The notes beneath the pieces are model-generated. The model worked only from the letters and a program-made list of their open reading frames with translations. It was not told the DNA's origin and searched no databases. DNA of 36,827 nucleotides from Gammaproteobacteria bacterium (GTDB lineage: Bacteria; Pseudomonadota; Gammaproteobacteria; GCA-002705445; GCA-002716945): contig JAURQW010000026.1 of NCBI GenBank assembly GCA_030835925.1, positions 1 through 36,827 on the forward strand, written 5' to 3'. Within the stretch, counting starts at the first letter, position 1. Each line of letters opens with the position of its first letter. Below are positions 3,282 through 32,962 of this stretch, one piece after another. Position numbers and translations under genes: made by a program.

Positions 3282-5312
3282 ATGAAAAATAACTGGTCAG
3301 AACATGAATCAGAACAATTTATAAAAAAATATACGGCTAGAGGACACACAGAAGCGCTTGCTCTGAGAGTATATACGACTCAACTATTAGGCAAAAATCC
3401 AAAACTAGTTCTTCATGGCGGTGGCAATAGCTCTGTAAAAACTGAAGTAAAAGACATTGATTCTAAAACTTATAAAGTTCTATGTGTTAAAGGTAGTGGT
3501 TGGGATATGGGCGATATTGAGCCGGAAGGTCTGCCAGCTGTTAAGTTGGATCCTTTGTTGAGCATGATAAATAAAAAAAAGTTGTCTGATGAAGATATGG
3601 TAAATTTTCAAAAAAGAAATTTACTTAATATTAAGTCCCCAAACCCTTCTGTTGAAACTTTTTTACATGCTTTTTTGCCACATAAGTTCGTTGATCATAC
3701 TCATGCTGATGCAATTCTAGATATTACAAATCGGCCAGATGGCTTGAAGCAGTGTAAAAAAATATTTGACCAAAAAGTTGGTTATGTGCCATATATTATG
3801 CCTGGTTTTTTGTTAGCAAAAAAAGTATATGAAACTTATCTGGAAAACCCAGATGTAAATTGCTTAATCCTATTAAATCATGGGATTTTTACATTTAGTA
3901 ATAGCGCAAAAGAATCTTATGATCTAATGATAAAAAATGTGACTATTGCTGAATCAGCTATAAGAAAAATGAAAAACAAAAAGCTCAGACAAATTAAGCC
4001 TTTTAAAAATACTTTGAGGCCTGCTGATATTGCCCCTGTTCTTAGAGGACTTCTCACAGATAAAAAGAAAAATGATTCATTTGTTATAAATTATAGAATT
4101 AATAAAGACATTAAATATTTTATGAATGGTATAGATGTAAAAAAATATTCAAAACGCGGTACAGTCACGCCGGATCATGTTATAAGAATTAAGCCTTACC
4201 CGCTCATTATTGATATTGACTCAAAAGATGATCTAACTAGCTTTTCAAAAAAAGCTGATATTGAATTAAAAAAATATAAGACTAGTTACATCAGTTATTT
4301 TAAAAAAAATAGCAAAGGCAAGGGATTAACTATGTTAGACCCATTTCCAAGAGTAATTTATGTAACGGGAATTGGGATGTTTAGTGTGGGCACTAATTAT
4401 AGTGCTGCATTGATAGCAGGAGACGTAGCTGAAACAAATGCAAGGGTCATCACATCTGTGGAAGAAACATCAACTTTTAAGACTATTAAAGAAAAAGATA
4501 TATTTGACATTGAGTACTGGTCATTAGAACAAGCTAAGATAAATAAAAGCAAAAAAACCCTACAAGGCAAGATAGTAGTGATAACTGGAAGTCTTGGTAC
4601 TATAGGGTTTGAAACTTATAAGTTGTTTAAAGCTCAGGGCGCAGAAGTAGTTTTATTAGATAATAATGAAAGTAAAATTAAGAAAATACAATCATCAATT
4701 CCAGATTTATGTTTACATGCAGATGTAACAAGCAGATCAAGTATTCAAAAGGCCTTTAAGATTATATGTCAGAGATTTGGGGGAATTGACATCTTAATTT
4801 CTAATGCTGGTTCTATTTATGATGGCCCCATAGCTGATGTTTCAGATAATGAACTTAAAAAATCATTTGATGATAATTTTTTCTCTCACCAAATATGTGC
4901 TTCTGAGGCTGTAAAAATATTTCTTTCACAAAAATCTAAAGGTTGTTTGCTTTTTAATATTTCTAAACAATCAGTGAACCCTGGGCTAAACTTTGGGTCA
5001 TATGGATTACCTAAAACTGCACTACTTGGATTATGTAAGCAGTATGCGCTCGATTATGGTAAGTATGGTATTAGATCAAACGGAGTTAATGCTGATAGAA
5101 TTAAAAGCGGAATACTTAATACTTCAATGATTAATAGTAGAGCAAAAGCTAGAAAAGTAACTATGAAAGATTATATGAAAGGCAATTTATTATTAAATGA
5201 AGTAACAGCGTACGACGTAGCAATGGCTTTTTTCCACCTAGCAGTTTCTAAAAAATCAACAGGAGCAGTTTTAACTGTTGATGGTGGCAATATTGCTGCA
5301 TCAATGAGATAG
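3282..5312 (+). CDS. bifunctional class II aldolase / short-chain dehydrogenase
   Basis: Fusion of a zinc-dependent class II aldolase with an NAD(P)-dependent short-chain dehydrogenase (676 residues). The aldolase half shows HGGGNSSVKTE (45-55) for phosphate binding, Glu125 in SVETFLHAF, the metal histidines in DHTHAD (139, 141) and His200 in LLNHGIF. The dehydrogenase half shows a dinucleotide motif TGSLGTIG (435-442, with Thr where many relatives have Gly), NAG at 508-510, Ser561, and the catalytic YGLPK pair Tyr574/Lys578. Databases usually call such fusions rhamnulose-1-phosphate aldolase/dehydrogenase. No rhamnose genes are present; instead it ends 2 bases from mtnA, tail to tail. Aldol cleavage of 5-methylthioribulose-1-phosphate followed by oxidation or reduction of the aldehyde is therefore an attractive inference. 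Confidence 0.9.
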   Translation: MKNNWSEHESEQFIKKYTARGHTEALALRVYTTQLLGKNPKLVLHGGGNSSVKTEVKDIDSKTYKVLCVKGSGWDMGDIEPEGLPAVKLDPLLSMINKKKLSDEDMVNFQKRNLLNIKSPNPSVETFLHAFLPHKFVDHTHADAILDITNRPDGLKQCKKIFDQKVGYVPYIMPGFLLAKKVYETYLENPDVNCLILLNHGIFTFSNSAKESYDLMIKNVTIAESAIRKMKNKKLRQIKPFKNTLRPADIAPVLRGLLTDKKKNDSFVINYRINKDIKYFMNGIDVKKYSKRGTVTPDHVIRIKPYPLIIDIDSKDDLTSFSKKADIELKKYKTSYISYFKKNSKGKGLTMLDPFPRVIYVTGIGMFSVGTNYSAALIAGDVAETNARVITSVEETSTFKTIKEKDIFDIEYWSLEQAKINKSKKTLQGKIVVITGSLGTIGFETYKLFKAQGAEVVLLDNNESKIKKIQSSIPDLCLHADVTSRSSIQKAFKIICQRFGGIDILISNAGSIYDGPIADVSDNELKKSFDDNFFSHQICASEAVKIFLSQKSKGCLLFNISKQSVNPGLNFGSYGLPKTALLGLCKQYALDYGKYGIRSNGVNADRIKSGILNTSMINSRAKARKVTMKDYMKGNLLLNEVTAYDVAMAFFHLAVSKKSTGAVLTVDGGNIAASMR

Positions 5313-5314
5313 TC

Positions 5315-6403
5315 TCACTTTTTACTAGTCGAATGATAATTTGACAAACCTTCAGCTGAACTCTCAAAAATTCCTTTCTCTGTTATGAGTTTGGTTATTA
5401 ATCTTCCAGGTGTAACATCAAAAGCAGGATTCAGGGCAGTGCAGTCTTTGGGAAAAATTCTTATTCTTTTTAATACATTACTGTCATCTATGCCAACGAC
5501 GTGAGTCAGTTCATCTGGTGCTCGATACTCAATCATATTTTTAGAAACTTTATCATTTTTAGAATCTATTGTGGTTCCAGGAAGGGCTACATAAAATGGA
5601 ATATTGTTATCAAAAGCAGCTAATGCTTTTAAGTATGTGCCAATCTTATTTATCACATCACCGTTCGCTAATACCCTATCTGTGCCTGTAATGCACATAT
5701 CAACCTCGCCCTGTCTCATTAATAATCCGCCAGCATTATCTGAAATTATAGTATTTGGTACACCCTCATTTGTTAGCTCATAGGAAGTCAGAGAAGCACC
5801 TTGATTTCTTGGACGTGTTTCATCGACCCAAACATGGATTTTAATACCATCTTTTAGGGCATGATAAATTGGAGATGTGGCTGTACCCCAATCAATAGTA
5901 GCTAACCATCCTGCATTACAATGTGTAAGTATATTTACCTTTTCTATATCATTTTTTTGTATGTATTCTGAAATGATCTTTTTTCCATATAGGCCTATTA
6001 GTCGACAGCATTCTTCATCTTCAAGACAAATATTTTTTGCTATCTCTAGAGACGCTTCGTAACGATCCTTTTTTTGTAAACTATTGAGTTTATCATTCAT
6101 TATAGTTACTGATGATTTAAGGTTAACAGCTGTTGGTCTAGTGGCAATTAACCTTTTAGAAGATTCTATTAGATTTTTATCTGATGGATCATCTTTCATT
6201 GCTAAAACTATTCCAAATGCTGCAGCCCCTCCAATCAATGGCGCGCCTCTTACTTGCATTGTTTTAATAGCAGTGATTATATCTTCTAGTTTATATAAAG
6301 ATATAATATCTAATGAATGAGGTAATTTTGTTTGATCTATAATTCCAACTGATTTGTCTTCATTAAACCAAATTGTTTTATAACTTTTATTATCAATCCT
6401 CAT
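5315..6403 (-). CDS. mtnA: methylthioribose-1-phosphate isomerase
   Basis: Converts 5-methylthioribose-1-phosphate to 5-methylthioribulose-1-phosphate in methionine salvage. Hallmarks are RGAPLIGGAAAFG, the catalytic cysteine region THCNAGWLAT, and GTDRVLANGDVINKIGTY with the catalytic aspartate. Length from this start (362 residues) is typical. I chose ATG 6403, giving MRIDNKSYKTIW, which resembles family N-termini; the in-frame TTG at 6430 would add nine unusual residues and a larger overlap. The gene overlaps the end of mtnP by 11 bases and is last in the leftward operon SHOCT-apt-mtnP-mtnA. No mtnB, mtnC or mtnD is visible downstream; the neighbour is the aldolase-dehydrogenase fusion. 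Confidence 0.95.
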   Translation of the reverse strand: MRIDNKSYKTIWFNEDKSVGIIDQTKLPHSLDIISLYKLEDIITAIKTMQVRGAPLIGGAAAFGIVLAMKDDPSDKNLIESSKRLIATRPTAVNLKSSVTIMNDKLNSLQKKDRYEASLEIAKNICLEDEECCRLIGLYGKKIISEYIQKNDIEKVNILTHCNAGWLATIDWGTATSPIYHALKDGIKIHVWVDETRPRNQGASLTSYELTNEGVPNTIISDNAGGLLMRQGEVDMCITGTDRVLANGDVINKIGTYLKALAAFDNNIPFYVALPGTTIDSKNDKVSKNMIEYRAPDELTHVVGIDDSNVLKRIRIFPKDCTALNPAFDVTPGRLITKLITEKGIFESSAEGLSNYHSTSKK

Positions 6404-7274
6404 TTTTTGAAAATAAAACTCTACCAGCAATTGTTTTTAACTTATTTTTAGTTTTTTCTGTCATTTTATCTGGCGCTGTAATTATTGCAGTATCTAGACA
6501 TGTATGTGTATCATCATTCTCATTTACTATGAACTCAAAATTATTAATAATATCTTTGATCATACTTCTAGCTTTCCCAGCATTATCTTGTAATACTTTT
6601 ATAATCATATCAATGTCAACATGATCATGACTAGGATGCCAGCAATCAAAATCTGTTACCATTGCAACAGTGCAATATCTAATCTCTGCTTCTTTTGCAA
6701 GTTTAGCTTCAGGCATATTTGTCATGCCAATTACATCAACACCCCATGACTTATAAAGATTTGATTCAGCTTTGCTCGAAAACTGCGGCCCTTCCATCGC
6801 TAAGTAAATGCCTCCTGATTGGTAGTCAACTTTAAGGCGATCAAGCGCTGAACCACAAAGTCTTATAAGATCATTGCTAGTAGGTTGAGCCATAGATACA
6901 TGAGCAACAATCTCTTCATCAAAGAATGTATTAGTTCGCGTATAAGTTCTGTCTATAAACTGGTCAATTAAAACAAATTTGCCCGGCGGCAATTCTTCTT
7001 TTAAAGAACCTACGGCTGAAACTGAAATGATATCGGTAACACCCTTTTGTTTAAGAGCATCTATATTAGCCCTAAAATTTATATTAGATGGTGAAACAGT
7101 ATGACCCCTGCCATGTCTTGGCATAAAATATACTTCTTGATCATTAAACTTGAGATTTAATATTTGATCAGAAGGATTACCCCATGGTGTTTTGATAGTT
7201 TCCCACGATGATTCAGAAAATCCATCAATTTCATATAAACCACTTCCTCCAATTATGCCTAGTTTTTTTTTCAA
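6393..7274 (-). CDS. mtnP: S-methyl-5'-thioadenosine phosphorylase
   Basis: Phosphorolyses 5'-methylthioadenosine, the by-product of polyamine synthesis, to adenine and 5-methylthioribose-1-phosphate. The protein starts with the phosphate loop GIIGGSGLYEIDG and contains RHGRGHTVSPS, AMEGPQFSSKAES and GMTNMPEAKLAKEAE, all diagnostic of the MTAP branch of the PNP/MTAP family. The DFDCWHPSHDHVD segment includes the base-binding aspartates. It is 293 residues, normal length. It begins 2 bases after apt, which salvages the adenine, and overlaps mtnA, which takes the sugar phosphate, so the operon covers both products. Confidence 0.95.
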   Translation of the reverse strand: MKKKLGIIGGSGLYEIDGFSESSWETIKTPWGNPSDQILNLKFNDQEVYFMPRHGRGHTVSPSNINFRANIDALKQKGVTDIISVSAVGSLKEELPPGKFVLIDQFIDRTYTRTNTFFDEEIVAHVSMAQPTSNDLIRLCGSALDRLKVDYQSGGIYLAMEGPQFSSKAESNLYKSWGVDVIGMTNMPEAKLAKEAEIRYCTVAMVTDFDCWHPSHDHVDIDMIIKVLQDNAGKARSMIKDIINNFEFIVNENDDTHTCLDTAIITAPDKMTEKTKNKLKTIAGRVLFSKNED

Positions 7275-7276
7275 TT

Positions 7277-7819
7277 TTAACCTTCTGCTTTCATAATACT
7301 AAAAACTTTATACCCTTTATTTTCAAGGATACTCGCTCCATTCAAATTATAAAGATCAATAACAAACATGAAGCTGATCCCTTTTAATGACATGTTTTCA
7401 ACTAATTTAGCTGCGGCAATAGCCGTACCACCAGTTGCAATCAAATCATCAACTATTAAAATCTTATCCCTTTTTAAAATACTATTTTTTTGTAGTTCTA
7501 CTTGGTCAAAGCCATATTCCAGCTTATATTTCTTTTTATACACAGGGCCAGGGAGCTTCCCTTTTTTTCTAATAGGTATAAATGGAATTTTATTCTTATT
7601 AGATACAATTGATCCAAAAATAAATCCTCTAGCATCTATTCCAACAATCTTTGTTATTTTTTCTTTTTTAACTATTTTACTAATTTCATCTACAATCTTT
7701 TTTAGTAAATGTGGTTTCCCAATTAATGAAAATATATCTTGAAACATAATACCTTTTTTCGGAAAATCAGGTATCACCCTTATGTTTTTTTTAAGTAGAT
7801 TTTCTAATTCATTTTTCAT
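7277..7819 (-). CDS. apt: adenine phosphoribosyltransferase
   Basis: Makes AMP from adenine and PRPP. The type I PRTase signature ILIVDDLIATGGTA is present with the two acidic residues that hold PRPP-Mg. Upstream segments IPDFPKKGIMFQDI and VGIDARGFIFG are characteristic of bacterial Apt. Length is 180 residues, as expected. It sits 4 bases after the SHOCT-like gene and 2 bases before mtnP, so it most likely recycles the adenine released by MtnP. Confidence 0.96.
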   Translation of the reverse strand: MKNELENLLKKNIRVIPDFPKKGIMFQDIFSLIGKPHLLKKIVDEISKIVKKEKITKIVGIDARGFIFGSIVSNKNKIPFIPIRKKGKLPGPVYKKKYKLEYGFDQVELQKNSILKRDKILIVDDLIATGGTAIAAAKLVENMSLKGISFMFVIDLYNLNGASILENKGYKVFSIMKAEG

Positions 7820-25816: not shown

Positions 25817-26477
25817 TTATCGTTACTGTTTGCACAGGAGGATTCAAGTAAAGTATACATAAGCCACCACCAGTTGTAGCTTCAAGTGTGTCAGCAACAT
25901 CAAACTTAATTGACACTTTCGGCGAGTCGGTTGCTTTTGGGGTATACGGAATAGCCAGAGCTACAGTGAATGTAAATGTAGATGCACCATCAGTTTTAGC
26001 TATACCATTACTTGTATAAGTTGCCGAAAGATCTGAATAATCTCCACCACCATTTGTATCTGGCACAACCCATGACATCTCACCCAAAGTTCCACTTGGT
26101 GCAGTTTTAGCTGTTGCTGTTGCAGAAGCAGCAGTATTTGATGGAGTTACCACAGTGTTACAAGTAGTCCCACTTACATCTTCGGTACCCTTAACCTTAA
26201 AATTTACATTAACTGTTGATCGTGCATATGTATATGTTCTTCCTAGAGCAATATTAAAGTCATTCAACCATGTACCAACATCTGATCCTATTGCAGCTGA
26301 GGCAATATCAAATTATTTGGACGCAGATCCTAGAACAATAGGGTCGCTACAAGCAGATGATGAACATAATTCAAATTTTGTGACAGTAGTCTTGTATGAT
26401 GTTGGAGTTGCGGTTGCTGCAAATACAAAACTAGGCACTAGCATTAATATTATATATAGAACTTTTAACTTTGACAT
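25809..26477 (-). pseudogene. secreted protein gene broken by an in-frame stop
   Basis: The minus-strand frame from ATG 26477 encodes a clear signal peptide (MSKLKVLYIILMLVPSFVFA) and continues to residue 54 (GSASK), where TAA at 26315-26313 interrupts. The same frame then resumes without any shift (FDIASAAIGSDVGTW) and runs open to 25809, giving about 222 codons in all. The mature part is Thr/Ala/Ser-rich with four cysteines in two pairs (LCSSSAC; later TCNT and GLCILY) and looks beta-rich, like a pilin- or adhesin-type exported protein. One base change would restore it. The ATG overlaps the stop of the barrel gene (TAATG). It may be a recent pseudogene or a sequencing error. Confidence 0.72.
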
Positions 26478-27343
26478 TATGTGCCTCTTCCTACAACTGC
26501 AGCGCCACTAATGCCTTTGACAATATTGTTTTCTCTTCTTACTTTTTCATAAAATCTATCAGATACAGATTTATATGAATATGCATTCTTCGTCATAAAG
26601 ACAATATTCTTATTAGTTGATGAATTGTCACAGCAGACAAGATAAGTTAACTTTACAAATTCCTTGTCATTGGACATAGTGCTGTCATCATGAATTCCCA
26701 TTTCAAGAGTGAATCTTCCAGAGGGCTGTAAATGTAAACTTAAAACCTCTCCATGTTTGATATCATAAATACTCGAATTCCATCTATAGCCTTTGTAATA
26801 TATTTTTGCCCATGGTAGATATGGCATATACATGGCGACTTCTAAATCATGTCCATCTGCAGCTTCTTCAGTAGTATCATTTATACTCTTTTTATTTGTC
26901 AAGGCGCGGTACATATTGAAATTAACGTCATAAACGCTCGATTTTAACTCGAGTCCAAAACCAACTCTAGAATGATTGGTATTAAATTCATGATCATAAA
27001 AAATATTATAACCATACATTAAAGTCTCATTATCTGATAGTTTTCTCCAAACGAACCCTAGATTAATAGTTTCAGATGAATCAAAGCTGGAAAATGAAAA
27101 CTGTGACAAATATTTTTCATTTGAAGTCTCTGAAAACTCAGTCATACCAAGAATTCTATAATCAGTTTTAGAATAATTTCTTATTCGTGTTTCAACTTCA
27201 ATTAATCTTAAATTTGATATGTTTTGTTTTGCCCAGGATTCAATAGTCGTGTCAACATAGCCTGTGACATTATTTAATGCCTCGCCAGAATACGCAGTCG
27301 GATGTATCAAACATATCAATAATAGATACTTACAAATTTTCAT
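26477..27343 (-). CDS. inverse-autotransporter-like outer-membrane beta-barrel protein
   Basis: Exported 288-residue protein with a signal peptide (cleavage near AYS). The central part resembles the barrel domain of intimin/invasin-type inverse autotransporters: LGFVWRKLSDNETLMYGYNI, FYDHEFNTNHSRVGFGLELK and a later AADGHDLEVAMYMPYLPWAK. Alternating aromatic and polar residues continue to LTYLVCCD. Typical members are long, with Ig-like passenger repeats after the barrel; here only about 45 residues follow the barrel. The stop overlaps the ATG of the secreted-protein gene, so the passenger role may have moved to that separate protein. Family assignment rests on motif resemblance only. Confidence 0.75.
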   Translation of the reverse strand: MKICKYLLLICLIHPTAYSGEALNNVTGYVDTTIESWAKQNISNLRLIEVETRIRNYSKTDYRILGMTEFSETSNEKYLSQFSFSSFDSSETINLGFVWRKLSDNETLMYGYNIFYDHEFNTNHSRVGFGLELKSSVYDVNFNMYRALTNKKSINDTTEEAADGHDLEVAMYMPYLPWAKIYYKGYRWNSSIYDIKHGEVLSLHLQPSGRFTLEMGIHDDSTMSNDKEFVKLTYLVCCDNSSTNKNIVFMTKNAYSYKSVSDRFYEKVRRENNIVKGISGAAVVGRGT

Positions 27344-27379: not shown

Positions 27380-27826
27380 TTACTTCTCAAGCTCTAGAAG
27401 TCGGTCCTTATGAACTAGTCCACCAAAGCTTGAATAACTAGATCTGCTATTATCCTTCGAAAGGACGCGGTGACAGGGAATTATAAGCAAGCATTTATTA
27501 GCCCCACAGGCATTGCCTATAGCTCTAGGAGAACTTGCTATATCTTTAGCGATATCAGAGTAATATTTTGAAGAACCATATTTAATTTGTAATAGTTGTC
27601 GCCAGACCTTTTTTTGATAATGTGTGCCATCTGGATTTACTTTAACTGTAAAAGTTTTTCTATGCCCTTTGAAATACTCTAGTATTTCTTTCTGAGCATG
27701 CATGAGTGTTCGATTGGAAGTTTTATTAATTCTTTTTTGTGTAAATGTTGAATGTATAATTTCACCATTCTTCTCTATTAATAACATTCGAGCCAAAGGC
27801 GTATCAAACACACATTCGTTTGTCAT
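27380..27826 (-). CDS. ogt: methylated-DNA-protein-cysteine methyltransferase
   Basis: Suicide repair protein that takes the methyl group from O6-methylguanine. The acceptor Cys118 lies in IIPCHRVLSK. The upstream helix SSPRAIGNACGANKC carries the arginine finger and DNA-recognition region, and the end SFGGLVHKDRLLELE is characteristic. At 148 residues it has a short N-terminal domain, as in Ogt/AdaB-like proteins. Its start overlaps the end of the MORN gene by 4 bases. Confidence 0.93.
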   Translation of the reverse strand: MTNECVFDTPLARMLLIEKNGEIIHSTFTQKRINKTSNRTLMHAQKEILEYFKGHRKTFTVKVNPDGTHYQKKVWRQLLQIKYGSSKYYSDIAKDIASSPRAIGNACGANKCLLIIPCHRVLSKDNSRSSYSSFGGLVHKDRLLELEK

Positions 27827-28308
27827 ATAACCTTTAAAAACTTTAGTAACCAGAACCCTATAACAGAAAGCATAAAGCCTATAACTATAATATTAATTAA
27901 AAATGTTGCGATTCTAAATTGAAAAGTATCTTGTTTATTATCTGGATTGACAAATTCACCATTGACCCATTTTCCAGTATAAGTGCTACCATCACTATAG
28001 GTCCATTGACCGTCACCAAACGGTCTTCCTTTTTTATATTCACCTTTATATACCTTTCCATTTGGGAAAGTATTCACTCCATAGCCATGAGGAAGATCGT
28101 TCTCCCAACCACCATCATAAGTCCTATCACTTAAAGTTTTTAAAACTCCTTTGCCATGCTTTTTGCCATCTAAAAAATCTCCAGTATAAATATCACCATT
28201 TTCAAAGGTTTGAACTCCGCTAGTCATATCATTATTTTTATAAGAAATGGTTGAATCTACAGATCTTTTGAATGAGTTCGATAAATTTTCTCTCGACATA
28301 ATTTTCAT
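27823..28308 (-). CDS. MORN-repeat protein with C-terminal membrane anchor
   Basis: 161 residues. Four MORN repeats run from about residue 33 to 120, recognisable by G-x-G-V-x-T-F-x-N-G-x-x-Y-x-G-x-F spacing: FENGDIYTGDFLDGKKHGKG, YDGGWENDLPHGYG, NGKVYKGEYKKGRPFGDG and DGSTYTGKWVNGEF. A single hydrophobic helix (about 133-156) ends the protein, so the repeats probably face the cytoplasm from the membrane. MORN proteins often bind membranes or act as scaffolds; the role here is unknown. An in-frame ATG at 28299 is an alternative start. Confidence 0.85.
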   Translation of the reverse strand: MKIMSRENLSNSFKRSVDSTISYKNNDMTSGVQTFENGDIYTGDFLDGKKHGKGVLKTLSDRTYDGGWENDLPHGYGVNTFPNGKVYKGEYKKGRPFGDGQWTYSDGSTYTGKWVNGEFVNPDNKQDTFQFRIATFLINIIVIGFMLSVIGFWLLKFLKVI

Positions 28309-28417: not shown

Positions 28418-30496
28418 TTAAGCTTTCTTAATTTGAGCTAAAACTGTATAGAAGATAGGCCCATCACCCATATCAGTTACATCTTGAGTGTTTAGGGCAT
28501 TGGCGTTTACACCGTTTTTGATCAGAGAACCTTTGTATTGTTTTTGAGTTGAGGCAACACCTTCAAGCATAGAATCTATTATTATAGCATGCGCATAAGT
28601 CTCTCCAATATCATTATAAACTTTACATAAGTCTCCATCTTTTATTTTTCTTTTACTTGCATCTTTACTACTCATTTCAATAGTAGGTCGCGATGCCATA
28701 TTTCTTAATCTTTCAACCGGCACAAAAGAGTTACCGATAAATTGATGTGTTGCCGGACTTAAAATCTGTATTGGATATTTTTTTCTTAAAGTCTTATCAG
28801 TGAACTCTTCAATATGTTCTGGGTAGGCACCCAAACCAATCTTTTCGGTATCTTTGGAATAGATCTGAATCTTGCCATCTTTTGTTGGCCAACCATTTTT
28901 GAGATAATCTCTTTTTTTATTTTCAACATCACCTTTAACCCATCCGTTTTTTTTGAGTTTTTCAAAGGTCACGCCTTTAAATAGAGGATTATGTTCAGGA
29001 TCAATCATATTCTTAATCATGCTTTCATCAGTTTCTTTAAAACATTTATCTTTATAGCCCATATACTTTGCTAGCTCTCTATATAAATCTTGATTTGATT
29101 TACTTTCACCCAATGGTTTAATGGCAGGCTGGGTTAAACTATAGTAATAGTGTCCGTAGGGCGCATGAAGATCCATATGTTCTAGTTGAGTATCTGCTGG
29201 TAAAACAATGTCTGCATAATCGCAACTATCTGTCCAAAAGGTTTCATGAACCACTGTAAACAAATCTTTTCTTTTTAGACCTTTGCGAACACTTATGCTA
29301 TCTGGTGCGCAATTAGCGACATCTGAATTCCAAACAAACAATGACTTAATTGGTGGGTCTAATTTTTTATCATTTAAAGCATTACCTATTTGAATCATAT
29401 TAATTGATCTCGGTTTTTTATCTTTTAAAAGATCAGGTCTTTGCAACTTTCCTAGATCAACATTCCACATCTCTTCAATTGATCCTACAAAACATCCAGA
29501 GCTCTTATTTTTCCAAGCCCCTGTAATCGCTGGAAGCAACATAATCGATCTCACCATCATCCCACCGTTTCTATGTCGATTTAAACCATAGTTTGGTCGA
29601 ATGTATGTTTTTTTGCTTGACGCATATTCCAAAGCTAATTGTTTGATATCTACTTTTTTAATACCTGTAATTTTTGAAACTTTATCTAAAGTATATTTCG
29701 GTAATATTTTTTCTAGAAATTCTTTATAACCAGTTGTATGCTTTTTTAAAAAAGCTAAGTCATGTTTTTTATTTTTAACTATTTCATTCATCATCCCTAA
29801 TGCTAAAGCTGCATCTGTTCCAGGCTTAGGCTGTATATGCCAGTCACTTATAGCTGCAGTTCTTGTTTCTCTTGGGTCAATACAAATTATTTTGGCGCCT
29901 CTTTTTTTTGCTTCTTCAACAAATGGCACCATATGAACATGTGTTGAAACAATATTGGTGCCCCAAAGTATTATTAAATCATTATTGGGAACCTCATCAA
30001 TTGCAGGTCCACAGGCCGCGCCATACGTATAAATTCCAGCCGTTGAAGCGGCTGCTATGCAAATAGTTCTGCCTAATCTTGCAGCTCCCATTTTATTCCA
30101 AAATCTTTCAGACATTCCCCAATAACCAAGCATCCCAAGCGTCCCTGAATAGCTATAAGGTTGTATCGCTTCAGCACCATGTTCTTTTTCAATAGCTTTT
30201 AGTTTTTTAGCAATTGTTTTAAGTGCAAAATCCCATGAGACTTTTTTGAGTTTACCTTTTTGTCCTTTTGGGCCTACCCTTACGTGTGGGTATAAGACAC
30301 GATTCTTATTATAGACCAGATCAAGGTAGTGATTTACTTTATTACAGAGAAAGCCTTTTGTTATAGGATGAGTTTTATCTCCTATGAGTTTAATCGCTTT
30401 TTTAGTCTTTGGATCAACTGTTACCTCTAAAGAGCAGGTATCAGGACAATCATGCGGACAGGTTACTTTGTATTTTTTGAATTTAGACTTTAACAT
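28418..30496 (-). CDS. molybdopterin-dependent oxidoreductase, DMSO-reductase superfamily
   Basis: About 692-residue catalytic subunit using a bis-MGD cofactor and one [4Fe-4S] cluster. The N-terminus has Cys13, Cys17, Cys21 and Cys51 (CPHDCPDTC, GFLC), a Cx3Cx3C spacing typical of the COG0243 branch around thiosulfate/polysulfide- and formate-type enzymes. Further family segments are ICIDPRETRTA, LPADTQLEHMD and the C-terminal cofactor-binding domain with SRPTIEMSSKDA. No Tat signal is seen, so it is cytoplasmic. Start ATG 30496 is preferred; a longer frame to 30559 would intrude into the flavoprotein gene, which it already overlaps by 14 bases. The substrate is unknown. Confidence 0.88.
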   Translation of the reverse strand: MLKSKFKKYKVTCPHDCPDTCSLEVTVDPKTKKAIKLIGDKTHPITKGFLCNKVNHYLDLVYNKNRVLYPHVRVGPKGQKGKLKKVSWDFALKTIAKKLKAIEKEHGAEAIQPYSYSGTLGMLGYWGMSERFWNKMGAARLGRTICIAAASTAGIYTYGAACGPAIDEVPNNDLIILWGTNIVSTHVHMVPFVEEAKKRGAKIICIDPRETRTAAISDWHIQPKPGTDAALALGMMNEIVKNKKHDLAFLKKHTTGYKEFLEKILPKYTLDKVSKITGIKKVDIKQLALEYASSKKTYIRPNYGLNRHRNGGMMVRSIMLLPAITGAWKNKSSGCFVGSIEEMWNVDLGKLQRPDLLKDKKPRSINMIQIGNALNDKKLDPPIKSLFVWNSDVANCAPDSISVRKGLKRKDLFTVVHETFWTDSCDYADIVLPADTQLEHMDLHAPYGHYYYSLTQPAIKPLGESKSNQDLYRELAKYMGYKDKCFKETDESMIKNMIDPEHNPLFKGVTFEKLKKNGWVKGDVENKKRDYLKNGWPTKDGKIQIYSKDTEKIGLGAYPEHIEEFTDKTLRKKYPIQILSPATHQFIGNSFVPVERLRNMASRPTIEMSSKDASKRKIKDGDLCKVYNDIGETYAHAIIIDSMLEGVASTQKQYKGSLIKNGVNANALNTQDVTDMGDGPIFYTVLAQIKKA

Positions 30497-32195
30497 AATT
30501 TTGCTTTTCGACTTTTTGAATAGATATAGCGTTAGTTGGGCAAACTTTCTCACACTCACCGCAACGCACGCACTTCTTATGATCGATTAATAATTTTCCA
30601 TGATAAATGCCAATCCCTTTTTTAGGATTTATTCTTTTATAAGATGTATCCCCATCTCCATGTTCATGAACATCGCTCACCTCAACGATACAATCTTTGA
30701 TGGGTTTAGCTAGTAGGCATTCATCACATAACACACAAAGATCATTATTGATCTCAAATTTATAATGACAAAGATAACATCTCGATGCTTCTTTTTGTGC
30801 AGTATTTTTTTTATACCCTTTTTCAACCTCACGACCAAAAGTTCTTTGACTTAGGTTGATAGTTGGCATTTCTTGTATCGGAATATAATTTAAGTCTAGG
30901 CGTCTGCCTGTGGTTTTAATATCCGTAACCTTAAGATCTGATTTAAATAGATCTCTTTTCATTAAAAACTTATCCACTCGCTTAACAACATCTTTTGCAT
31001 GAGCAATTGCATTGATTAAAGTCGTTGCCCCAGTAGCAAAATCTCCTACGGAGAAAATATTATTTCTTTTATTCTTGCCTAACGTTAGATGCTGTTGCTG
31101 ACCAATAGCAAGAATGATATGGTCTGTTTTAATTTTAAAAGATGATCCTTTGATATCCTCTAAACGATATGCTCCTTTCTTTTTAACTAACTTAGTTTTA
31201 ATTAATTCCAATGCTGATAATCTATTATTCTTTTCAATTAATTTTATGGGTTGAGCATTAAAAATCATTTTTCCATGTTCATTAATAAGTTCCTCAAGTT
31301 CGCCAGGCAATATAATTAAATCATTAGTTGTTCTGCGATAAAAAGTTCTTACAGTTTTTGCTCCAAGTCTAAGTGCAGTTCTAGCACAATCCATACTTGT
31401 GTAACCACCTCCAATTACAACAACATTTTTACCTATATATTTACTTTTATACTCATTAACACGAAGCAAGAAATCCAATCCATCTTCAACATTATATGAT
31501 TTAGAGAACTCATCATTTATTTCATTGGGCTTCAGCGTGCCTAGGGCTAGAAGCACCGCATCATATTTAGCAGCTAGTTCTTCTACTTCTTTGTAAGTTT
31601 TGATATCTTTATTGTAATAAACTTTTATATTTTGCTCTAAGACTTGATTTATTTCTTTATCAATAATATCTCGCGGTAGCCTAAATACTGGTATGCCTTG
31701 ATTAAGCATGCCACCCGGAGAATCATGTCTTTCAAAAATTATTACTTCATGACCACACCTTGTTAATTCTCTTGCTGCCGTTAGGCCAGCTACACCTGAC
31801 CCAATAACTAAAATTTTCTTTCTAGTCTTTTTAGCATAATTTTTTAGTTTAAATTTTTTTATAGAACTAAATTGTTCAGAAGATCTTTTAGAAAAACATA
31901 TTGATATTGGTTCGCCATTAGAATCATCACCATGTCTACACGAATCTTCACATGGTCTTGAACAGACTCTGCCAAGAATACCTGGGAACACGTTATCTTC
32001 TAGATTAATTTGATATGCTTTTATATAGTCTTTATTATAGATTGCTTCTAGGTAGCCTGGTATGTCAGTATCGGCAGGGCATGCCGACCTACAAGGTACA
32101 CTTTTTTCATACCACTTAGTATCTCTTTTATTTTCTGAAGCACCTTTATTTATAGTTAACGCAGATGCGTATCTGCTAAAAAAGCCTTTCTTCAT
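30483..32195 (-). CDS. GltD-like FAD/NAD(P) oxidoreductase with C-terminal ferredoxin domain
   Basis: 570-residue electron-transfer protein. The N-terminal domain has iron-sulfur cysteines (CRSACPADTDIPGY, then VCSRPCEDSCRHG). A FAD motif VIGSGVAGLTAAREL begins near residue 130 and an NAD(P) motif VVVIGGGYTSMDCARTALR near 258. The C-terminus carries an atypical cysteine group (CYLC, CVLCDEC) and a canonical ferredoxin motif CVRCGECEKVCP. It is thus like the glutamate synthase small subunit plus ferredoxin, and passes electrons between NAD(P)H and a partner. The partner is most likely the molybdoenzyme whose gene overlaps its end. No large glutamate synthase subunit is nearby. Confidence 0.88.
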   Translation of the reverse strand: MKKGFFSRYASALTINKGASENKRDTKWYEKSVPCRSACPADTDIPGYLEAIYNKDYIKAYQINLEDNVFPGILGRVCSRPCEDSCRHGDDSNGEPISICFSKRSSEQFSSIKKFKLKNYAKKTRKKILVIGSGVAGLTAARELTRCGHEVIIFERHDSPGGMLNQGIPVFRLPRDIIDKEINQVLEQNIKVYYNKDIKTYKEVEELAAKYDAVLLALGTLKPNEINDEFSKSYNVEDGLDFLLRVNEYKSKYIGKNVVVIGGGYTSMDCARTALRLGAKTVRTFYRRTTNDLIILPGELEELINEHGKMIFNAQPIKLIEKNNRLSALELIKTKLVKKKGAYRLEDIKGSSFKIKTDHIILAIGQQQHLTLGKNKRNNIFSVGDFATGATTLINAIAHAKDVVKRVDKFLMKRDLFKSDLKVTDIKTTGRRLDLNYIPIQEMPTINLSQRTFGREVEKGYKKNTAQKEASRCYLCHYKFEINNDLCVLCDECLLAKPIKDCIVEVSDVHEHGDGDTSYKRINPKKGIGIYHGKLLIDHKKCVRCGECEKVCPTNAISIQKVEKQNYVKV

Positions 32196-32359: not shown

Positions 32360-32962
32360 ATGAGTTGGAGTTTAAAAGGGGATTATGCAGAAAGCTGTAA
32401 TTGCGATCTAATGTGCCCATGTTTATACCTACAAAGCCCAACAAAAGGTTTTTGTGAGGCAATGCTTGTATGGGATATTAATAAAGGTAATCTAGGTGAT
32501 GTTAAGCTAGATGGCTTAAAAGTTTCCGCATGGTTACATGCGCCAGGTCCAAATCTTACAGATGGTGGATTTCAGTTAGCATTATATATTGATGAAAATG
32601 CAACAGATGAGCAAGCGACTGCTATCGAAGAACTATGGGGCGGAAAACATGGCGGACACTTAGGTGTTATAGCTAGTTTAGTAGGTGAAGTTATTGGTGT
32701 CAAAAGAGCAGCAATTAATTTCAAAAAAGATGGTGCTAAGCAAACATTAGAAGTTAGCGGCGCTGGTGGCTGGGATATGGCTGGTGTTGAAAGTGGAGAT
32801 GGTAAAGTTGCTCAATGTAACTATCATCCGCTTGCAATAAACCCTGGATTTCCAGTTGATGTGAACATGACTAGCAAGCAAGAGTATTCAGATCATGGCA
32901 GAACATGGAATACAACTGCTGATAGAGTTGGTCTGTCAGGACCTTTTGCTTATCAAGCATAA
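32360..32962 (+). CDS. DUF1326 domain protein
   Basis: 200-residue protein of the DUF1326 family, whose function is not established. The cysteine-rich start is typical: YAESCNCDLMCPCLYLQSP then KGFCEAML, giving five cysteines in the first 35 residues and a plausible metal or redox site. The body includes AIEELWGGKHGGHLG, also a family feature. ATG 32360 follows AGGAG by 7 bases. It is transcribed divergently from the molybdoenzyme operon and is followed by a clear terminator, so it is a single-gene unit. Confidence 0.88.
   Translation: MSWSLKGDYAESCNCDLMCPCLYLQSPTKGFCEAMLVWDINKGNLGDVKLDGLKVSAWLHAPGPNLTDGGFQLALYIDENATDEQATAIEELWGGKHGGHLGVIASLVGEVIGVKRAAINFKKDGAKQTLEVSGAGGWDMAGVESGDGKVAQCNYHPLAINPGFPVDVNMTSKQEYSDHGRTWNTTADRVGLSGPFAYQA

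What the first reader, a model, noticed from the sequence alone, without database searches (positions are those of the whole stretch)
28418..32195. Overlapping molybdoenzyme and GltD-like ferredoxin-flavoprotein pair of unknown substrate
The flavoprotein could move electrons between NAD(P)H and a cytoplasmic bis-MGD enzyme. The 14-base overlap argues for a complex. There are no formate, nitrate, sulfur or selenocysteine accessory genes nearby to reveal the substrate, and no Tat signal. A soluble NAD(P)H-linked molybdoenzyme in what seems a streamlined aerobe merits study.
Basis: inference. Interest (0 to 1): 0.5.

Follow-up and report, generated by a model that had tools for sequence, protein, structure and literature searches.

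The report
Molybdenum enzyme with swapped electron-supply module
A small-genome marine sulfur-oxidising bacterium carries a soluble molybdenum enzyme of unknown substrate, fed by an NAD(P)H flavoprotein that looks spliced together: it keeps the enzyme's usual iron-sulfur connector but has a different flavin engine from the one most relatives use.

Summary
The pair is real. Mo gene 28418-30496 (-, 692 aa) and flavoprotein 30483-32195 (-, 570 aa) overlap by 14 nt, and the overlap is conserved. The Mo enzyme is a cytoplasmic bis-MGD (DMSO-reductase superfamily) protein of an uncharacterised clade. It is not a formate dehydrogenase: it scores 279 against a cut-off of 666, and relatives in the same family carry a separate true FdsA and FdhD.

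In the window's family the reductase is GltD-like instead, but ends in the same ferredoxin domain (mostly 43-54% identical to the FNR-type one, against 21-31% for other GltD-like proteins). So the flavoprotein appears chimeric: a GltD-type NAD(P)H module on a Mo-enzyme-specific adaptor. In 369 gammaproteobacterial genomes the adaptor and the Mo clade occur in exactly the same 10.

Most likely flow: NAD(P)H (NADP(H) favoured by a YRR motif) -> FAD -> adaptor -> [4Fe-4S] -> Mo, probably reducing a small oxidised substrate. Substrate and direction are unproven. The genome also holds an rDsr sulfur-oxidation cluster, but the link to it is weak.

The parts
28418..30496 (-). Catalytic subunit, 692 aa, bis-MGD molybdopterin oxidoreductase with an N-terminal [4Fe-4S] site (Cys13, 17, 21, 51)
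   Evidence: Pfam; alignments A2, A4; AF2 model pLDDT 92.4
30059..30061 (-). Codon of Cys146, likely protein ligand of the Mo/W
   Evidence: invariant in 46 of 46 rows of A4; aligned with Sec140 of E. coli FdhF and the RHC cysteine of NapA; placed otherwise in phmmer pairwise alignments
30483..32195 (-). Electron-transfer flavoprotein, 570 aa: Fer4_20 + FAD/NAD(P) domains + C-terminal ferredoxin adaptor
   Evidence: Pfam; alignment A1
30483..30779 (-). C-terminal 8-Cys ferredoxin adaptor (residues 473-570), shared with FNR-type partners of related Mo enzymes
31332..31340 (-). YRR motif (residues 286-288) of the NAD(P) domain, read as an NADP(H) sign
   Evidence: invariant in A1 and A5; motif meaning from PMC7596348 section 18; found in the window protein, not in the genome's DsrL
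30483..30496 (-). 14-nt overlap of the two genes
27823..28308 (-). MORN-repeat gene, downstream border of the two-gene unit (not part of it)
   Evidence: lies next to DUF1326 in the empty site of G006 (L177)
32360..32962 (+). Divergent DUF1326 gene, upstream border (probably not part of it)
   Evidence: DUF1326 family present in 24 of 25 family genomes, including ones without the pair

Best explanation
The two genes encode a soluble NAD(P)H-linked bis-MGD oxidoreductase. The flavoprotein takes a hydride from NAD(P)H, splits it on FAD and passes single electrons through its C-terminal 2x[4Fe-4S] adaptor to the N-terminal [4Fe-4S] cluster of the Mo subunit and on to the metal, probably held by Cys146, where a small oxidised substrate is reduced. 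The adaptor is the fixed connector to this Mo enzyme; the NAD(P)H-flavin engine has been exchanged between an FNR fold (most marine gammaproteobacterial relatives) and a GltD fold (the window's family). Shown by computation: domains, pairing, co-occurrence, shared adaptor, chimeric similarity. Inferred: complex formation, direction (reductase), cofactor (NADP(H)), ligand. Unknown: substrate.
For: Domains. Pair conserved with a 14-nt overlap and present or absent as a unit: empty site in G006, where DUF1326 and MORN genes are 156 bp apart (L177); G015 and G013 also keep DUF1326 without the pair (L181, L180). Tally over the 61 loci with at least 50% identity and a long enough Mo match: FNR-type 42 plus L079, whose ORF was merged, GltD-type 11, none 5, cut by contig end 2. 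Flavoprotein body is closest to GltD-like proteins next to 2-oxoacid oxidoreductases (30-33% over 398-455 aa), its C-terminus to FNR partners (51% over 92 aa and 43% over 83 aa), against 24-31% for the 2-oxoacid-linked and 27-28% for DsrL C-termini. Both partner kinds have CxxCDECL[LM] with the usual CP cysteine replaced; the adaptor tree joins them, 95/85. The adaptor profile hits 10 of 369 class genomes, the same 10 that hold the Mo clade (over 1100 bits; next best 608). FNR partners score nearest to AntC, BenC and MmoC, reductases known for moving electrons from NADH to a terminal enzyme (recalled), which favours the reductase direction.
Against: No substrate evidence of any kind. 5 of 61 loci have no adjacent partner; more distant relatives (32-39%) looked at have none of these partners beside them, so the fold does not require this partner. 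The reverse direction (substrate oxidation, NAD(P)+ reduction) is not excluded: DsrL-type flavoproteins work both ways (PMC7596348). The adaptor tree has long branches and only 81 columns. The flavoprotein model is poor (pLDDT 55) and no complex was modelled. The Cys146 assignment depends on alignment. The pair is dispensable in the family: no Mo match at 1e-80 in 9 of 25 genomes, some only through incompleteness.
Confidence: 0.6

Rival explanations
1. It is a formate dehydrogenase (NADP-linked CO2/formate enzyme).
For: FDHs lead the structural list (Z 36, tied with NapA and acetylene hydratase) and TIGR01591 is the best NCBIfam model.
Against: 279 bits against a cut-off of 666, while the family's own FdsA (L027) scores 772. 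FdhF His141 and the Arg333 region RGQNN are not conserved (Ile147; VGSIEE; their catalytic role is recalled). FdhD is in 18 of 25 family genomes, close to FdsA in several (by coordinates), so formate is already served; G000 itself has neither (83% complete).
Confidence: 0.07
2. It works in the oxidative direction in sulfur metabolism, for example as a soluble NAD(P)+-linked dehydrogenase of a sulfur compound such as sulfite.
For: G000 has a dsr cluster (L184); 8 of the 10 genomes with the Mo clade have dsrA, against 110 of the other 359; MAG and SAG names among relatives include Porisulfidus and Thiothrix.
Against: G026 and G385 (99% complete) carry the Mo clade with the FNR-type adaptor and no dsrA; G006 has dsrA without the pair; the 10 genomes are only five families, so the counts are not independent; no sulfur gene is a conserved neighbour, apart from a Sulf_transp gene in 6 loci of one lineage. 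AprAB was not tested.
Confidence: 0.15
3. Assimilatory nitrate reductase-like enzyme (soluble Mo subunit plus NAD(P)H flavoprotein).
For: Same overall architecture as Nas systems (recalled); Cys-type ligand site.
Against: 225 bits against a cut-off of 1100 for NasC. In family genomes the NIR_SIR hits come as one adjacent pair of DsrA/DsrB length, confirmed as DsrA for G000, leaving no clear nitrite reductase; one small extra fragment in G004 was not followed.
Confidence: 0.05
4. Non-redox chemistry like acetylene hydratase or metallopterin ergothioneine synthase, the flavoprotein only activating the metal.
For: Acetylene hydratase is the nearest solved sequence (3.3e-90 with profile A3); MES is a published acetylene-hydratase-like enzyme that makes C-S bonds (PMC9516567, part 1 of 6 read).
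Against: Strict pairing with a full NAD(P)H reductase of either fold points to turnover-linked electron flow; no fused cysteine desulfurase.
Confidence: 0.08

Closest known systems
DMSO reductase / MopB superfamily, Cys-ligated branch (FDH, NapA, acetylene hydratase)
   Same: Three Pfam domains, [4Fe-4S] site, fold (Z 33-37, 18-26% identity in the first 30 rows), Lys53 after the fourth cluster Cys
   Different: Below every NCBIfam cut-off; lacks FDH catalytic residues; soluble and NAD(P)H-linked through a dedicated adaptor
DsrL and other GltD-like flavoproteins (Nfn, PRK12771, 2-oxoacid-oxidoreductase-linked proteins)
   Same: Fer4_20 + FAD/NAD(P) + C-terminal 2x[4Fe-4S] ferredoxin; YRR motif as in DsrL-2
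   Different: 369 bits against the PRK12771 cut-off of 516, where the genome's own DsrL has 686; C-terminal ferredoxin is of another lineage; partner is a Mo enzyme
FNR-type oxygenase reductases (BenC, AntC, MmoC)
   Same: Fold of the partner that most relatives of the Mo enzyme use
   Different: Those relatives carry a C-terminal 8-Cys adaptor, no N-terminal 2Fe-2S domain, and sit with a Mo enzyme; the window's protein has no FNR fold
Mo enzyme - ferredoxin - FAD oxidoreductase - moaA/glp operons on rhizobial, Thioclava and Methylophaga plasmids
   Same: Related Mo subunit (34-38%) with a ferredoxin and a pyridine-nucleotide flavoprotein as separate genes
   Different: Separate ferredoxin, another flavoprotein; no function is given in the records either

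Membership tests
DMSO reductase / MopB superfamily | Molybdop_Fe4S4, Molybdopterin and Molydop_binding domains over Pfam cut-offs | tested here: met
   38.6, 165.3 and 53.7 bits against 22.7, 24 and 26.8
DMSO reductase / MopB superfamily | Bound bis-MGD with Mo or W | not testable with these tools
   moaA over cut-off in 23 of 25 and mobA over cut-off in 19 of 25 family genomes, both in G000, so the cofactor can be made
Formate dehydrogenase alpha (TIGR01591) | Score over the curated cut-off | tested here: not met
   278.9 against 666.25; control FdsA L027 771.6
Formate dehydrogenase alpha (TIGR01591) | His next to the ligand and Arg in RGQNN (roles recalled) | tested here: not met
   alignment with E. 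coli FdhF
Assimilatory nitrate reductase NasC (NF047855) | Score over the curated cut-off | tested here: not met
   225.4 against 1100
Acetylene hydratase | Same active-site residues as the solved enzyme | tested here: inconclusive
   best PDB sequence hit; ligand placement differs between alignments
DsrL / PRK12771 | Score over the NF009410 cut-off | tested here: not met
   369 against 516; DsrL of the same genome 685.6
DsrL / PRK12771 | Encoded with dsrAB | tested here: not met
   dsr genes are on contig C26 with their own DsrL
GltD (glutamate synthase small subunit) | Score over cut-off (TIGR01316/01317/01318) | tested here: not met
   236, 173 and 174 bits against 472, 448 and 483

The most novel reading that the evidence does not exclude
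An uncharacterised clade of soluble NAD(P)H-driven bis-MGD reductases in marine gammaproteobacteria whose ferredoxin adaptor is the conserved docking part, onto which two unrelated flavin reductase folds (FNR and GltD) have been spliced in sister lineages; the reaction is a new one for the superfamily.
Probability: 0.45. Interest if true: 0.68.

Novelty: new variant of a known kind. Interest (0 to 1): 0.5.

Why it matters
It gives a defined two-gene unit, with a strict genomic signature, for finding a possibly new Mo-dependent reaction in marine gammaproteobacteria. It also offers a natural experiment in how a redox enzyme changes its electron supply: the connector domain stays while the engine is replaced. 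That can be tested directly by swapping modules between sister-lineage proteins.

Tried and rejected
Formate dehydrogenase, nitrate reductase, GltD and DsrL identities were tested and rejected (see membership tests). DUF1326 as a third component: conserved beside the pair in the family, but present in 24 of 25 genomes, including ones without the pair, and not a neighbour outside the family. Genomic context as a substrate clue: conserved neighbours of FNR-type loci look like lineage background (TolB, OmpA/pal-like, QueC, an IMS-type DNA polymerase, ammonium transporter, M48 peptidase); a fatty-acid-desaturase-like gene lies near the Mo gene in 6 loci (cluster 25; 2 members checked with Pfam) but fits no NCBIfam model at 1e-20 (5 such genes scanned), left open. 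Association with dsrA: suggestive only. Structure of the flavoprotein: pLDDT 55, not used. Fold list: FDH, NapA and acetylene hydratase are tied, so it does not choose a substrate.

Papers. Searches listed no paper whose title or abstract start deals with this pair. Read: PMC9516567 part 1 of 6; PMC10100899 three passages; PMC7596348 passages and section 18; others seen only as listings.

Full report
Observation. The Mo gene (28418-30496, minus, 692 aa) overlaps the end of the flavoprotein gene (30483-32195, minus, 570 aa) by 14 nt; the overlap is 14 nt in 10 of 11 family rows measured and 8 nt in one, with 3 rows not measured. Domains are as described. The Mo subunit has no signal peptide: its first cluster cysteine is residue 13. 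The genome held is 918,761 bases in 27 contigs, 83% complete. A dsr gene cluster (dsrA, a DsrB-like gene, dsrC and DsrL supported by models; the rest by order and length) lies on another contig, so this is a small-genome sulfur oxidiser; named relatives are mostly gammaproteobacterial MAGs and SAGs.

Distribution in the family. Of 25 genomes in the order (all one family), 16 have a Mo match at 1e-80; G002 has the first 54 codons at a contig end, and in G024 the gene is broken while the flavoprotein is intact. Where the surroundings are held, the pair lies beside a divergent DUF1326 gene and two TPR genes. G006 (99% complete, same genus) shows the empty site: DUF1326 and the MORN gene are 156 bp apart (L177). 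G015 and G013 also have the DUF1326 gene without the pair. So the two genes come and go as a unit, and DUF1326 (24 of 25 genomes) is probably only a neighbour.

What the Mo subunit is. It belongs to the DMSO reductase superfamily. NCBIfam models all stay far under their cut-offs. Nearest solved sequences are acetylene hydratase and formate dehydrogenases; the AF2 model (pLDDT 92.4) matches FDH, NapA and acetylene hydratase about equally. Cys146 is invariant in 46 of 46 rows and aligns with Sec140 of FdhF and the NapA cysteine, although pairwise phmmer alignments shift it. FdhF His141 and the Arg333 region are not kept. A true formate dehydrogenase (L027, 772 bits against 666) and FdhD (18 of 25 genomes) exist separately in the family, though not in G000 as held.

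Partner exchange. The single scan of named genomes gave 80 loci. By script, 61 of them have at least 50% identity and a Mo match of 400 or more columns: FNR-type partner 42, GltD-type 11, none 6, cut by the contig end 2. One of the six (L079) does carry the FNR partner in a merged ORF, giving 43 and 5. The other 19: 13 below 50% without such a partner, 2 below 50% cut, 4 fragments (L126, L134, L136, L137). The FNR-type partner has FAD_binding_6, NAD_binding_1 and a C-terminal Fer4 and is nearest to AntC/BenC/MmoC. In the Mo tree the GltD-partner rows form one clade (12 rows, 100) sister to a clade of 48 rows that are mostly FNR-partnered (99), the fork joining them having support 86; two betaproteobacterial rows without a partner lie outside (root for drawing only, long outgroup branches).

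The shared adaptor. The C-terminal domain of the window's flavoprotein is 43-54% identical over about 80 residues to 13 of the 14 FNR-type C-termini tested and 40.7% to the fourteenth, against 21-29% for GltD-like proteins next to 2-oxoacid oxidoreductases. In a second comparison the figures are 51% and 43% for two FNR types, 24-31% for the 2-oxoacid-linked and 27-28% for DsrL, while the flavoprotein body is closest to the 2-oxoacid-linked GltD-like proteins, 30-33% (POR domains in the neighbouring genes). In plasmids only 4 records match the domain, at 28-33%. Both partner kinds share CxxCDECL[LM], with the CP cysteine of ordinary ferredoxins replaced. A strict pattern matched 40 ORFs, all of the two partner kinds, and missed some true partners with Arg or Ala in the motif. 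A tree of 32 ferredoxin domains joins the two kinds (95/85) apart from DsrL, 2-oxoacid-linked and free ferredoxins, with long branches. A profile of the domain finds it in 10 of 369 gammaproteobacterial genomes at 1e-12; a profile of the Mo subunit over the same-sized sample finds the clade (over 1100 bits, next 608) in exactly those 10, at neighbouring coordinates. The simplest reading is that the ferredoxin is the dedicated connector to this Mo enzyme, and that the NAD(P)H-flavin part was replaced. Which of the two engines came first is not settled.

Mechanism. NAD(P)H -> FAD -> two [4Fe-4S] of the adaptor -> [4Fe-4S] of the Mo subunit -> metal. The YRR motif (residues 286-288) is invariant in the family and is described as indicative of NADP in DsrL-2 (PMC7596348). 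Direction: BenC-type reductases supply electrons from NADH (recalled), so a reductase is favoured; DsrL-type proteins run both ways in vitro, so this is an inference. Substrate: unknown. dsrA is in 8 of the 10 genomes with the Mo clade and 110 of the other 359; the 10 are only five families, and the two without dsrA are 99% complete, so the sulfur link is a lead only.

Verdict. A real, unnamed Mo enzyme clade with an apparently chimeric, exchangeable electron-supply protein; a new variant of a known kind.

Noticed in passing
G000:C26 (L184:1963-14283): Dsr-type sulfur-oxidation cluster (dsrA, dsrC and DsrL supported by models, the rest by order) in a genome of about 1 Mb; its DsrL lacks the YRR motif.
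   Followed up: partly
L045 and L126 (G024): Mo gene broken into two ORFs while the flavoprotein stays open; could be decay or assembly error.
   Followed up: no
L080:4704-9242, L102:1102-9326, L106, L111: A fatty-acid-desaturase-like (PF00487) gene near the Mo + FNR genes, in several loci with a second Mo enzyme and another FNR reductase: a possible pathway clue in a sister lineage.
   Followed up: partly
window 3282-7819: Class II aldolase/short-chain dehydrogenase fusion near IF-2B-like (MtnA-like), nucleoside phosphorylase and phosphoribosyltransferase genes; looks like a nucleoside by-product salvage cluster (inference from Pfam).
   Followed up: no
window 26477-27343: Inverse-autotransporter beta-domain protein (PF11924), at 42-80% identity or absent beside the pair in other family genomes.
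   Followed up: no
L056, L057, L059: Plasmid-borne operons of a related Mo enzyme with ferredoxin, FAD oxidoreductase and moaA or glp, two of them beside an AraC-type regulator; function unknown.
   Followed up: partly
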